From: a virus
Length of the DNA: 64,000 bases
Virus record (IMG/VR): IMGVR_UViG_3300003877_000001
Coordinates: 124,001 to 188,000 of that record
Strand: one strand, 5' to 3'
How positions within the stretch are numbered: position 1 is the first letter of the stretch; the number at the start of each line of letters is the position of its first letter. Positions 1 through 33,802 of this stretch are shown here, piece by piece. Both the position numbers and the translations under genes were made by a program. The notes under the pieces were generated by a model that was not told the origin of the DNA, did not search any database, and saw only the letters and a list, made by a program, of their open reading frames with translations.

Positions 1-2
1 AT

Positions 3-668
3 ACATATGTATTTGAAATTATATATCCTGAAAATCGTATTGTTATTGATTATGGTAAGACTGAAGATTTGGTTCTTTTAGGTGTTATCAATACTGATGG
101 TGGTGATGAAATGTCATATGATGATATGGTGTATAATCACTCTGATGAATTTACTATTGTTGAAAAGTATGATGTAACATCTGATATTTCTAAATTAAAG
201 GAATTAGAAGAAGATAACAAAGAAGGATTTGTTGTACGTTATTCTAATGGCTTCCGTGTAAAAGTAAAATTCGATGAATATTGCAGATTACATAGAATCG
301 TTACTAACGTATCTAATAAGACAATTTGGGAATCATTGAAAAATGGTGAAGGATTGGATGAAGTTATTGATAGAGTTCCTGATGAATTCTACAATTGGGT
401 TAGACGTACTGAAAAGGGTTTAAATGATATGTATATTGAAATTGAAGTTGAAACATTACGTGAATTCGTTAGGGTAACTAATTTAGTTAGTTTGAAAAAT
501 GGATTTGATCCTTTTGAAAGAAAGAAAGAATTTGCTTTAATAGCAAAAGAATTTAAACATTCTGGATTATTATTTTCTATGTATAATAATAAAAATTATT
601 CTGAAGCAATTTGGAAAATGATTAAACCAGACTGGTCAACACCATTTAGAGATGGGTATGAAAATTAG
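3..668 (+). CDS. T4 Rnl1-like RNA ligase, C-terminal part (cut by left edge)
   Basis: The frame is open to the left edge, so only the C-terminal 221 residues are present. The first visible residues (TYVFEIIYPENRIVIDYG) resemble the middle of T4 RNA ligase 1 proteins. EGFVV and KVKFDEY fit nucleotidyltransferase motifs IV and V. The adenylated lysine (KxDG) lies outside the window. Rnl1-type ligases reseal cleaved tRNA anticodon loops together with polynucleotide kinase, which is encoded near 15 kb. It ends TAG TAA, a double stop, followed by a terminator hairpin. Confidence 0.75.
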   Translation, partial: TYVFEIIYPENRIVIDYGKTEDLVLLGVINTDGGDEMSYDDMVYNHSDEFTIVEKYDVTSDISKLKELEEDNKEGFVVRYSNGFRVKVKFDEYCRLHRIVTNVSNKTIWESLKNGEGLDEVIDRVPDEFYNWVRRTEKGLNDMYIEIEVETLREFVRVTNLVSLKNGFDPFERKKEFALIAKEFKHSGLLFSMYNNKNYSEAIWKMIKPDWSTPFRDGYEN

Positions 669-14392: not shown

Positions 14393-14836
14393 ACAATTGA
14401 ATTAATTGATTATTATAAAAATAAATATGATGGTGAATTAATTATAAAATCAATTGAATACAAAACAGTATATATTAATGGAAATCATATTAAAAAATTA
14501 GAACATGTCTATGAAATTTATGTTCTTTTAGATTTATTAACCCCAAATGCAAATTCTTGGAATATTCCGAATTTTTTTAAAAGTAAAGTTTCTTTTGAAA
14601 ATGCAATTAAAATGTTTAAAGTTGCTGTAAATGGATATTTAGAAGCCTTATTAATTGAAAAAGAGTTTGTAGAAATAAGTTCAGAGAAAAGACTTTTAGT
14701 TGATTTATTATCAAAAGATATTAATTCTTTAAACGAAGAAGATTTTGATTTCATGATTTCACATTATCTAAAAATAGAAGAATATTTGAAAGTTCAAAAA
14801 TATGAAAATTTAAAAAAAAAATATTATGAAAAATAA
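14372..14836 (+). CDS. hypothetical protein, 154 aa
   Basis: The second copy of the duplicated start (MKNYEELTIELIDYYKNKYD) is the one that stays open. A predicted alpha/beta start is followed by helices. The C-terminus overlaps the next gene by 11 bases. Not recognised. Confidence 0.65.
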   Translation: MKNYEELTIELIDYYKNKYDGELIIKSIEYKTVYINGNHIKKLEHVYEIYVLLDLLTPNANSWNIPNFFKSKVSFENAIKMFKVAVNGYLEALLIEKEFVEISSEKRLLVDLLSKDINSLNEEDFDFMISHYLKIEEYLKVQKYENLKKKYYEK

Positions 14837-15734
14837 AAAAATAATTCTTCTCTGTGGAATCCCTGCTAGTGGAAAATCTACATGGGCAAATAAATTTATA
14901 TTAAATAATTCTAATTATGTTAGAATTAATAGAGATATGTATCGTTTAATGCTTGATGGTTCTCAAATAATGGATTTTAAGGGAGAAAAGTTAGTAACTG
15001 AATTAGTTAATAATGCAATTGTTTTGGCTACAAAGTCTAAGTATAACGTACTTGTTGACCAAACTAATGTTAACTTAAAGTACTTGAATGAAATGGTTGC
15101 ATTTTGTGAAAAAATTGCAGATGTTGAGTTTAAAATATTCGATATAACAGAAAAAGTCGCCATCGAAAGAGACTCAAATAGAGATGCTAAAGTAGGTGCA
15201 AAAGTAATCAAAAAAATGTACAAAAACTACTTAAATCTATTCTCTTCTAATTTCGATTTCTCAACAAGAAAAAGAAAACCACATATTGCTACCAACATCA
15301 AGTGGGAGCGTGATGGTACTTTACCAGATGCAGTGATTTTTGACATTGATAGTACTATAGCACATACTCAAGGTAAAAGAGGGATATTTGATTGGGATAA
15401 AGTTAATCTTGATATTGTAGATGAAATTGTTCTTGAAACAATTAAATCATATAAGGACTATGGTTATAAGATTATCTTTGTTACGGGTAGAGATGGTGTT
15501 TCACGAAAAATGACAGAAGATTGGTTAATACATAATAAAATACCTTTTGATATGTTATTCACTAAACCTAAAAATGATTTCAGAAAAGATATTATAAATA
15601 AAACAGAAATTTATCATAATTTCATTAAACCAAATTATAATGTATTAGCAGTTTATGATGACCGTAATTCTGTTTGTAAAATGTGGAGAAATTTAGGAGT
15701 AAAATGCTACCAAGTTCAAGAGGGTGATTTTTAA
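14826..15734 (+). CDS. pseT: polynucleotide kinase-3' phosphatase (PseT-like)
   Basis: The N-terminal kinase has a P-loop GIPASGKSTWANKF; the C-terminal HAD phosphatase starts at VIFDIDSTIAHT (about residue 170) with FVTGRDGVSR and VYDDRNSVCKMW later. The 302-aa size and domain order match T4 Pnk. T4 Pnk with RNA ligase restores tRNAs cut by host anticodon nucleases; the tRNA island and two RNA ligases here suggest the same job. Confidence 0.93.
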   Translation: MKNKKIILLCGIPASGKSTWANKFILNNSNYVRINRDMYRLMLDGSQIMDFKGEKLVTELVNNAIVLATKSKYNVLVDQTNVNLKYLNEMVAFCEKIADVEFKIFDITEKVAIERDSNRDAKVGAKVIKKMYKNYLNLFSSNFDFSTRKRKPHIATNIKWERDGTLPDAVIFDIDSTIAHTQGKRGIFDWDKVNLDIVDEIVLETIKSYKDYGYKIIFVTGRDGVSRKMTEDWLIHNKIPFDMLFTKPKNDFRKDIINKTEIYHNFIKPNYNVLAVYDDRNSVCKMWRNLGVKCYQVQEGDF

Positions 15735-21549: not shown

Positions 21550-21660
21550 TTATACCGAATTCGGTATAAATAAAATCATAGTAATGTAATGACCTCAAAA
21601 GTCATTTTGTTACTATGAATAAACATCGGGGATGATATACTATTTTATCGTAGTACCCCG
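21550..21660. repeat. three successive hairpins between tRNAs
   Basis: A perfect 20-base palindrome is at 21550-21569 (TTATACCGAATTCGGTATAA), then CATAGTAA/TTACTATG (21577-21617, with ATGAC/GTCAT inside) and CGGGG/CCCCG (21627-21660). No gene is seen. Confidence 0.6.
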
Positions 21661-21737: not shown

Positions 21738-21807
21738 CAAAGTTGCTATTCATATCTACTTAATGACTTCATAAGTCATTTCAATGATACAAATAACAAC
21801 AAAACAT

Positions 21808-22436: not shown

Positions 22437-22850
22437 ATGAAAAAAACATGTACTATTTGTAATATAAAAAAAGATTTTGAAGAATTCTCTTGGAGAAATA
22501 AAAGTAAAAATATTAAACATTCACAATGTAAAGATTGTAAGAAAATTATCGATAATAAACATTATAGTGTTTCGAAAAAAAGAAGAGAAGATATTAGAAT
22601 TAGGTCAAAAATTCATTATAATTTTCTTAGAGAATATATAAAAAGATTAAAATTATTTGGCGAATGTAATGTGTGTGGAGAAAAAAGATGGTATGTTTTA
22701 GATTTTCACCATATAAATGAAAAAAATGAAAATATTAGTTTTTTAGTTAAAAGTGGAGTATCTATTTTTACATTAAAATCTGAAATTAGAAAATGTGAAT
22801 TGGTTTGTTCTAATTGTCATAGAGAAATCCATCATTTTAAAAAAAAATAA
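22437..22850 (+). CDS. HNH homing endonuclease, 137 aa
   Basis: N-terminal zinc motif (CTICNIKKDFEEFSW...CKDCKK), then CNVCGEKRWYVLDFHHINEK and CSNCHREIHHF at the end. It is similar to the protein at 2655. It stops 3 bases before tRNA-Phe. A GTATTTATA box lies directly upstream of the ATG. Confidence 0.88.
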   Translation: MKKTCTICNIKKDFEEFSWRNKSKNIKHSQCKDCKKIIDNKHYSVSKKRREDIRIRSKIHYNFLREYIKRLKLFGECNVCGEKRWYVLDFHHINEKNENISFLVKSGVSIFTLKSEIRKCELVCSNCHREIHHFKKK

Positions 22851-23174: not shown

Positions 23175-23248
23175 TGTCTCGTAGTTCAACTGGTGAGAGC
23201 ACCACGCTGATAACGTGGAAGTTATGGGTTCGAATCCCATCGAGACAA
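23175..23248 (+). tRNA. tRNA-Ile (GAT), second copy
   Basis: Acceptor TGTCTCG/CGAGACA fully paired, stem CCACG/CGTGG, loop CTGATAA. Confidence 0.9.
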
Positions 23249-23249
23249 C

Positions 23250-23321
23250 TTCATAGATGCAGGTTCGAATCCTGTCTCTTCCTTCGGGGAGTGTGGTGTA
23301 ACTGGAAAGCATAATGGACTT
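23250..23321 (+). tRNA. circularly permuted tRNA-like sequence (3' half before 5' half)
   Basis: Reading order: anticodon 3' strand TTCAT (23250-23254), AGAT, T-arm GCAGG-TTCGAAT-CCTGT, acceptor 3' strand CTCTTCC, linker TTCG, acceptor 5' strand GGGAGTG (23287-23293), D-arm GTG...CAT, then ATGGA (23314-23318) and CTT. ATGGA pairs with TTCAT and GGGAGTG with CTCTTCC (one mismatch), so the halves make one tRNA if joined. The missing anticodon-loop bases would overlap the flanking Ile and Ser tRNAs. It may be a permuted gene or the relic of a tandem duplication. Confidence 0.55.
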
Positions 23322-23411
23322 AGAGGGTTGGCAGAGTCTGGCTTATTGTACTAGTCTTGAAAACTAGCATACGTTCATAGCGTATCGTGGGTTCGAATCC
23401 CACACCCTCTG
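23322..23411 (+). tRNA. tRNA-Ser (TGA)
   Basis: Acceptor AGAGGGT/ACCCTCT, stem CTAGT/ACTAG, loop CTTGAAA, long variable arm, discriminator G. Confidence 0.9.
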
Positions 23412-23416
23412 CATTT

Positions 23417-23771: not shown

Positions 23772-24461
23772 ATGATTAAATATGAAAAAAAAAGATTAGA
23801 ATTAATTGTTTCTAAATCAGAAACATATAGACAGGTATTGTTAGCATTTGAACGAAACACTTCATCTGCATCATATAAAATTTTAAAAAGAAAATTAAAA
23901 GAATGGAATATTTCCATTGATCATTTTCTTTCTAGTAAAGATGTTGTACATAAATTACAAAAAGAGGGTAAATTAATAAAATATTCTGATGACGATATTT
24001 TTAAAAAATCTAATATTGGTAGAGGTACTGTTAAGAAACGATTTTTAACGAAAGTAGAAAAGAAATGTGTTTTATGTGGGCAAGATGAAAATTGGAATGG
24101 CATGAAAATATCTTTAATAATGGATCATAAAAATGGAATTAATATTGATCATAGATTTGAAAATTTAAGATTACTTTGCCCTAATTGTAATGCAGGAATA
24201 CCTACACATTGTAAAGGTAATATTGGTATTTTAAATAATATAAACAAACAAATTAAATTAAACAATAAAATAGATAAAAGAACCTTATATAATGGAGTTG
24301 GAAAACCTAAACAACGCAAAGTTGAAAGACCATCATACAATGAATTAATTAAAGATATTAACAATTTAGGATATTTAGGTACTGGTAGAAAATACGGTGT
24401 TAGTGACAATTCTATTAGAAAGTGGAAAAATTTTTATGAAAAACAAGCCTCTATGGTGTAA
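23772..24461 (+). CDS. HNH homing endonuclease, 229 aa, overlapping tRNA-Arg
   Basis: Helical N-terminus, then CVLCGQDENWNG, LIMDHKNGINIDHRFENLRL, LCPNCNAG, and a C-terminal DNA-binding-like segment (YLGTGRKYGVSDNSIRKWK, a resolvase-like HTH). An ACGTATTTATA box precedes it. The last 15 bases, including the stop, lie in the 5' end of tRNA-Arg(TCG). Confidence 0.88.
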   Translation: MIKYEKKRLELIVSKSETYRQVLLAFERNTSSASYKILKRKLKEWNISIDHFLSSKDVVHKLQKEGKLIKYSDDDIFKKSNIGRGTVKKRFLTKVEKKCVLCGQDENWNGMKISLIMDHKNGINIDHRFENLRLLCPNCNAGIPTHCKGNIGILNNINKQIKLNNKIDKRTLYNGVGKPKQRKVERPSYNELIKDINNLGYLGTGRKYGVSDNSIRKWKNFYEKQASMV

Positions 24462-24518: not shown

Positions 24519-24523
24519 CAATT

Positions 24524-24565
24524 GCGAGTGTGGTGCTAACGGTAACACATTTCCAATCACTCGCT
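24524..24565 (+). tRNA. T-armless mini tRNA-like sequence
   Basis: A perfect 7-bp acceptor GCGAGTG/CACTCGC and a D-arm GTG-CTAACGGTAA-CAC are followed by ATTTCCAAT, a Gly(TCC)-like loop, then straight to the acceptor 3' strand. The T-arm and anticodon 3' stem are missing; it is only 42 bases. Confidence 0.5.
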
Positions 24566-33716: not shown

Positions 33717-33786
33717 GTTGCCATAGGTTGGTGTAAAATATTAGTCTCTAAAACTAATAACGAGAGTTCGAATCTCTCTGGCAGCA
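33717..33786 (+). tRNA. suppressor-type tRNA, anticodon CTA (reads UAG)
   Basis: Acceptor GTTGCCA/TGGCAGC, anticodon stem TTAGT/ACTAA, loop CTCTAAA with CTA at 33748-33750, variable TAAC, T-arm GAGAG-TTCGAAT-CTCTC. The D-arm is short and weakly paired. The loop differs by one base from a Trp-type CTCCAAA loop, so it may derive from tRNA-Trp. Charging identity cannot be read. Confidence 0.75.
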
Positions 33787-33802
33787 CTTAAATATTAAAA
33801 AT

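What the first reader, a model, noticed from the sequence alone, without database searches (positions are those of the whole stretch)
23250..23321. Circularly permuted tRNA between tRNA-Ile and tRNA-Ser
A T-arm half precedes a D-arm half, joined at the acceptor ends by TTCG. ATGGA/TTCAT and GGGAGTG/CTCTTCC complete the cloverleaf. Permuted tRNA genes are known in some algae and archaea, not to my knowledge in phages. The break in the anticodon loop coincides with the ends of the flanking tRNAs, so RNase P and 3' processing of the neighbours would release precisely this fragment, leaving an RNA that ligase could close; this phage encodes RNA ligases and a polynucleotide kinase.
Basis: partly seen in the sequence, partly recalled or inferred. 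Interest (0 to 1): 0.75.

Follow-up and report, generated by a model that had tools for sequence, protein, structure and literature searches.

The report
Capped tRNA mimic between phage tRNAs
A jumbo phage carries, wedged between two transfer-RNA genes, a small RNA-like element built from tRNA parts in swapped order and closed by a hairpin; it looks not like a working tRNA but like a stripped-down bacterial "Y RNA" (a tRNA mimic), and dozens of other phage tRNA arrays carry the same arrangement.

Summary
23250-23321 is a T-half, TTCG, then a D-half whose acceptor (6/7) and anticodon-stem (5/5) strands pair, flush between tRNA-Ile and tRNA-Ser. Chance is excluded: 0 of 7,656 random pairs of tRNA halves and 0 hits in 20 shuffled genomes do as well.

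The permuted-tRNA reading is not supported. Three anticodon-loop bases are missing, C74 is absent, and TTCG is a C(UUCG)G tetraloop capping the acceptor strands. This is the architecture of YrlA, the tRNA mimic of bacterial Y RNAs: Rfam's weak YrlA match covers exactly this stretch, and a relative phage has five YrlA-like RNAs plus a Ro60 (TROVE) gene. The window element lacks the Ro60-binding stem, and no TROVE was found in its genome, which may be incomplete.

It is not alone. IMG/VR scans gave about 32-50 hairpin-capped permuted elements with a tRNA directly upstream, about 20 also with one directly downstream. Caps differ, stems covary (181 double-changed cells; shuffles 63), base 33 is U in 6/32 (intact tRNAs 515/546), and TROVE occurs in 1/32 records, against 32/63 for UUCG-capped elements overall.

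Most likely: a Ro60-independent Y-RNA-like tRNA mimic released by processing of the flanking tRNAs. Its function is inferred.

The parts
23250..23321 (+). Whole element: hairpin-capped, permuted tRNA-like module between tRNA-Ile and tRNA-Ser
23250..23254 (+). 5' strand (TTCAT) of the basal stem, equivalent to anticodon-stem 39-43; pairs with 23314-23318
23259..23275 (+). T-arm GCAGG-TTCGAAT-CCTGT, with T54 T55 C56 R57 A58 intact
23276..23293 (+). Acceptor-like hairpin CTCTTCC(TTCG)GGGAGTG, closed by a C(UUCG)G tetraloop at 23283-23286
23296..23312 (+). D-arm GTGT-AACTGGAAA-GCAT with the G18G19 equivalent
23314..23318 (+). 3' strand (ATGGA) of the basal stem, equivalent to anticodon-stem 27-31
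23319..23321 (+). 3' tail CTT up to the RNase P site of tRNA-Ser
23175..23249 (+). Upstream tRNA-Ile(GAU), intact; its 3' processing would set the element's 5' end
   Evidence: 70.1 bits
23322..23412 (+). Downstream tRNA-Ser(UGA), intact; RNase P cleavage would set the element's 3' end
   Evidence: 51.0 bits
12995..13627 (+). RNA ligase, PF09414 (Rnl2 type)
   Evidence: 94.3 bits, G000:137106-137558
14826..15734 (+). Polynucleotide-kinase-like P-loop protein (PF13671)
   Evidence: 60.1 bits, G000:138844-139227
1..278 (+). 3' part of a T4 Rnl1-family RNA ligase domain that begins before the window
   Evidence: 72.7 bits, G000:123730-124278

Best explanation
The element encodes a small tRNA mimic of the YrlA (bacterial Y RNA) type: T-arm, acceptor-like hairpin capped by a UUCG tetraloop, and D-arm, closed by a 5-bp stem equivalent to the anticodon stem. 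The Ro60-binding basal stem of a true YrlA is missing. It sits flush between two tRNAs in a tRNA array. Shown from sequence: the architecture, its recurrence directly next to tRNA genes in dozens of other phages, compensatory variation of its stems, the absence of anticodon features, and the rarity of Ro60 genes in carriers. Inferred: it is co-transcribed, RNase P (on Ser) and tRNase Z or 3' trimming (on Ile) free a 72-73-nt RNA with both ends at the base of the stem, and the elbow (T and D loops) is its working part, acting as a decoy or tether for elbow-reading proteins (tRNA modifiers, PNPase as for YrlA, or tRNA nucleases). Whether the phage's ligases close it into a circle is open.
For: Structure and pairing are far beyond chance. 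Rfam's YrlA match covers exactly 23248-23321, though weakly (15.9 bits). Relative G002 has YrlA-like elements (44.9, 36.7, 30.8, 16.2 bits, plus one read by eye) and a TROVE gene. Relative LR745206.1 has a Ro-type one. A model built from 32 tRNA-adjacent elements of other phages finds the window element at E 1.6e-10 and Ro-type elements at 45-60 bits, so all share one core. In a scan that did not require pairing, 17 of 59 matches have both acceptor and basal stems paired against 0.23% for swapped halves. Covariation: 85.7% of cells paired against 59% in shuffles, 181 cells changed on both sides against 63. U33 in 6/32 against 515/546. TROVE in 32/63 records with UUCG-capped elements, 3/37 records whose pattern match failed the pairing test (p = 9e-6), and 1/32 records with a tRNA-adjacent element.
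Against: No expression data. The window element is a single copy without a close homologue, so selection on it cannot be measured directly. It has one mismatch and several G-U pairs, and the intended fold is 2 kcal/mol above the minimum-energy fold (-11.0 against -13.0). Junctions of intact tandem tRNAs can reach similar model scores (up to 44.7 bits), so the score alone does not prove membership. The element search required pairing, so part of the covariation is selected for. The function is not tested.
Confidence: 0.7

Rival explanations
1. Non-functional remnant: a decayed Y RNA or scrambled tRNA pieces left by recombination in a fast-changing tRNA array.
For: The array holds other tRNA wrecks (for example 24523-24565, a tRNA-like piece with acceptor and D-arm only). 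One T.T mismatch, several G-U pairs, single copy, no close homologue.
Against: All stems pair, the T- and D-loop consensus bases are intact, the cap is a perfect C(UUCG)G, and the same architecture recurs in dozens of phages with compensatory changes. Random halves do not pair like this.
Confidence: 0.2
2. A true circularly permuted tRNA gene: the fragment is ligated in the anticodon loop, then the acceptor loop is opened by RNase P and tRNase Z to give a decoding tRNA.
For: Halves of one cloverleaf in swapped order; break in the anticodon loop as in many known permuted tRNAs (PMC3978253); the phage has Rnl1, Rnl2-type ligases and a kinase; known intervening sequences can be as short as 1 nt (PMC3978253).
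Against: Three anticodon-loop bases missing; no C74 where 26 of 27 local tRNA genes have it; tetraloop cap; sister elements show no U33 preference, tail sums of 3-15 nt, and acceptor stems of 6-9 bp; no flank helix.
Confidence: 0.05
3. A conventional YrlA that binds Ro60 through a basal stem not recognised here, using a phage Ro60 encoded outside this record or a host Ro60.
For: Same core as YrlA; relatives carry YrlA and, in G002, TROVE; G000 may be incomplete (325,854 bases, while one relative is 634,780).
Against: The flanks are intact tRNAs; duplex energy of the flanks is no better than shuffled (z +0.47). No TROVE in G000 with the Pfam model or with G002's protein.
Confidence: 0.05

Closest known systems
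YrlA, bacterial Y RNA (Rfam RF02553)
   Same: T-arm, hairpin-capped acceptor-like stem and D-arm in the same permuted order; found in related phages
   Different: No Ro60-binding basal stem; far below Rfam's cut-off (15.9 against 69 bits); flush between tRNA genes; no Ro60 gene found in the genome
Circularly permuted tRNA genes of red and green algae and Thermofilum (PMC3978253)
   Same: 3' half precedes 5' half; break in the anticodon loop; short sequence joins the acceptor strands
   Different: No complete anticodon loop, no C74 or CCA, no bulge-helix-bulge at the junction; the joint is a tetraloop
Permuted tmRNA (RF04321)
   Same: A permuted RNA with a tRNA-like part
   Different: No mRNA-like tag part and no Rfam match here; the phage has a separate tmRNA-like match at L016:14656-15012 (43 bits, cut-off 47)

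Membership tests
YrlA / bacterial Y RNA | tRNA-like module: T-arm, capped acceptor-like stem and D-arm in permuted order | tested here: met
YrlA / bacterial Y RNA | Basal stem formed by the 5' and 3' ends that binds Ro60/Rsr | tested here: not met
   Flanks are tRNA-Ile and tRNA-Ser; flank duplex z +0.47; Rfam match covers only model positions 19-90 of 114
YrlA / bacterial Y RNA | Score above Rfam's gathering threshold | tested here: not met
   15.9 against 69 bits; G002's clear examples also stay below (44.9 at best)
YrlA / bacterial Y RNA | Ro60 (TROVE) gene in the same genome | tested here: inconclusive
   None in G000, but the record may be incomplete
Circularly permuted tRNA gene | 3' half precedes 5' half of one cloverleaf | tested here: met
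Circularly permuted tRNA gene | Joined halves give a complete tRNA with a 7-nt anticodon loop | tested here: not met
   ARAGORN finds nothing in the joined halves until 3 nt are added
Circularly permuted tRNA gene | Bulge-helix-bulge or similar structure at the junction | tested here: not met
   No helix between the flanks beyond shuffled expectation; the BHB motif itself was not modelled
Circularly permuted tRNA gene | Circular intermediate and charged mature tRNA | not testable with these tools
   Needs RNA from infected cells

The most novel reading that the evidence does not exclude
Phage tRNA arrays carry a recurrent, previously unnamed class of small RNAs: hairpin-capped, Ro60-independent tRNA mimics that use the flanking tRNAs as processing signals, so that tRNA maturation frees an L-shaped RNA with its only ends at the anticodon stem, resembling a tRNA cut in its anticodon loop. 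It could act as a decoy for anticodon nucleases or sensors of cut tRNA, or be closed into a circle by the phage's own ligases.
Probability: 0.35. Interest if true: 0.78.

Novelty: new variant of a known kind. Interest (0 to 1): 0.6.

Why it matters
Bacterial Y RNAs are understood through Ro60: the stem tethers the protein and the tRNA-like part meets the nuclease PNPase. A form without the stem, repeatedly built into phage tRNA arrays, would mean that the tRNA mimic is useful on its own and that phages make it for free by tRNA processing. It would link phage tRNA arrays to the contest over tRNA cleavage and repair, and gene finders miss such elements because they look only for intact cloverleaves.

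Tried and rejected
1) Permuted tRNA that decodes: rejected on anticodon loop, C74 and U33. 2) Permuted group I intron-exon arrangement, suggested by shared flanks around permuted elements in G002: rejected because Rfam reports YrlA and no intron there. 3) Deletion product of an intact tandem pair: no intact copy in the genome and no such pair found. 4) Close homologues: none in INPHARED beyond tRNA-Ser or among IMG/VR patterns. 5) Divergent Ro60 in G000: not found. 6) A NAMPT query for relatives found none. 7) RNA-model score alone as proof: rejected, since junctions of intact tandem tRNAs score up to 44.7 bits. 8) The shuffle test of basal stems is conservative (only a third of the UUCG-capped elements reach p <= 0.05), so the lack of a Ro stem in the window rests mainly on the flanks being intact tRNAs. 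9) Literature: no paper on permuted tRNA-like elements in phage tRNA arrays was found in the held library; the key Y RNA papers (Chen 2014, Sim 2020) are not held, so prior description cannot be excluded.

Full report
OBSERVATION. The window is part of a 325,854-base IMG/VR phage record with about 50 tRNA genes. Between tRNA-Ile (23175-23248, then C) and tRNA-Ser (23322-23412) lie a T-half, TTCG and a D-half. Their acceptor strands pair 6/7 and their anticodon-stem strands 5/5. Among 88 tRNAs of this phage and a relative, none of 7,656 non-cognate half pairs match as well, and 20 shuffles of the genome give no hit.

NOT A tRNA. Joining the ends leaves CTT, or CTTC with C23249, as the anticodon loop, three bases short; ARAGORN reports a tRNA only when three are inserted. 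All but one of the 27 tRNA genes of the window have C after the discriminator; here it is T. The supposed linker is C(UUCG)G, a tetraloop that closes the acceptor hairpin.

WHAT IT RESEMBLES. A scan for permuted tRNA-like structures in a relative (G002, 372 kb) found such an element outside its intact tRNAs, and Rfam named it YrlA, the tRNA mimic of bacterial Y RNAs. G002 has several (a further one without D-arm read by eye) and a TROVE/Ro60 gene. In the window the YrlA match is weak (15.9 bits) but covers 23248-23321 exactly and omits the basal stem. The relative LR745206.1 also has a Ro-type element. Literature: YrlA consists of a basal stem that binds Rsr/Ro60 and a tRNA-like domain of D, T and acceptor arms that binds PNPase (PMC8394870); a subset of jumbo phages encode TROVE proteins (PMC7824862).

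HOW COMMON. Many carry a long basal stem with shared motifs (5' GTAG...GGTTACTTC, 3' CTGTT, by eye). Of 100 records tested for TROVE, 32 of 63 with such elements have it, against 3 of 37 whose match failed the pairing test (p = 9e-6).

THE tRNA-ADJACENT FORM. Some elements lie directly next to tRNAs and lack that stem. Two further scans and one cap-independent scan gave 51 candidates with a tRNA within 14 nt upstream, 21 of them also with one within 14 nt downstream (one is the window element). The weakest of these 51 are doubtful; 32 passed stricter limits. Examples: L170 Ala|element|Pro (UUCG cap, D-half ending GGACTT as in the window), L331 Pro|element|Gln (GAAA), L341 Gln|element (GAGA), L236 Phe|element|Asn, L098 and L326 Tyr|element|Phe. 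Three homologous elements (L294, L305, L319) keep a perfect 5-bp basal stem with three different sequences, ATAGC/GCTAT, TAGTA/TACTA and TAGAG/CTCTA.

CONTROLS. In the scan, which did not ask for pairing, 17 of 59 matches have both stems, against 0.23% when halves are swapped between loci. On the alignment of 32 elements 85.7% of cells pair (shuffled 59%), with 181 double changes (shuffled 63) and a sharp drop when partners are slid; the elements were chosen partly for pairing, so one search is the cleaner test. A model of these 32, window excluded, finds the window element as the best match of its genome (42.7 bits, E 1.6e-10) and Ro-type elements too. Junctions of intact tandem tRNAs can score as high, so the decisive point is that the window halves belong to no intact tRNA. 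Base 33 is U in 6 of 32 elements and 515 of 546 intact tRNAs at the same loci; tails to the neighbouring tRNAs sum to 3-15 nt. TROVE occurs in 1 of 32 records with the tRNA-adjacent form; many of these are fragments.

INTERPRETATION. The best account is a Y-RNA-like tRNA mimic without the Ro60 stem, cut out by maturation of its neighbours. Release, stability and function are inferences. It could hold tRNA-elbow-binding proteins; for Salmonella YrlA a role as competitive inhibitor of an anticodon nuclease has been suggested (PMC7790460). The phage's Rnl1, Rnl2-type ligases and kinase make ligation possible but are common tRNA-repair genes of jumbo phages (PMC7824862).

LIMITS. No RNA data. The key Y RNA papers are not in the held library; from memory, Chen et al. 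2014 already reported Y RNAs in phages, so only the stem-less, tRNA-flanked form is proposed as new. G000 may be incomplete, so the absence of TROVE is provisional.

Noticed in passing
L026 and L027 (relative G002), minus strand, G002 positions about 49053-47789 and 35126-34669: Five YrlA-like RNAs in one phage's tRNA arrays, several with an inner hairpin that looks like an anticodon arm (loops CTGTTAA, CTTCCAA, CTGTAAA), sharing the motif GTTACTTCG; one has lost its D-arm.
   Followed up: partly
L053, L080, L106 and other Ro-type loci: Ro-type phage Y RNAs often contain an anticodon-arm-like hairpin (such as CTTCACTTGTAATGAAG) just before the T-arm, so the whole cloverleaf is present in permuted order.
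   Followed up: partly
window 24523-24565: tRNA-like remnant with a perfect 7-bp acceptor (GCGAGTG/CACTCGC) and a D-arm but no T-arm, just before tRNA-Gly 24634.
   Followed up: no
window 21587-21625 and 21762-21785: Spacer hairpins that resemble anticodon arms (ATGAC-CTCAAAA-GTCAT and ATGAC-TTCATAA-GTCAT).
   Followed up: no
L016:14656-15012 (genome 113656-114012): tmRNA-like RNA in the phage (43 bits, just under Rfam's cut-off of 47).
   Followed up: no
window 33717-33787: Predicted tRNA with a CTA anticodon, a possible amber suppressor, far from the main array.
   Followed up: no
window 22437-22850 and 23772-24461: HNH endonuclease genes interleaved with the tRNA genes.
   Followed up: no
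L166, L172, L173, L174: A different tRNA-like RNA with two T-arm-like hairpins and the shared motif CTGGCCGAGATC...GGTGAGA; not identified.
   Followed up: no
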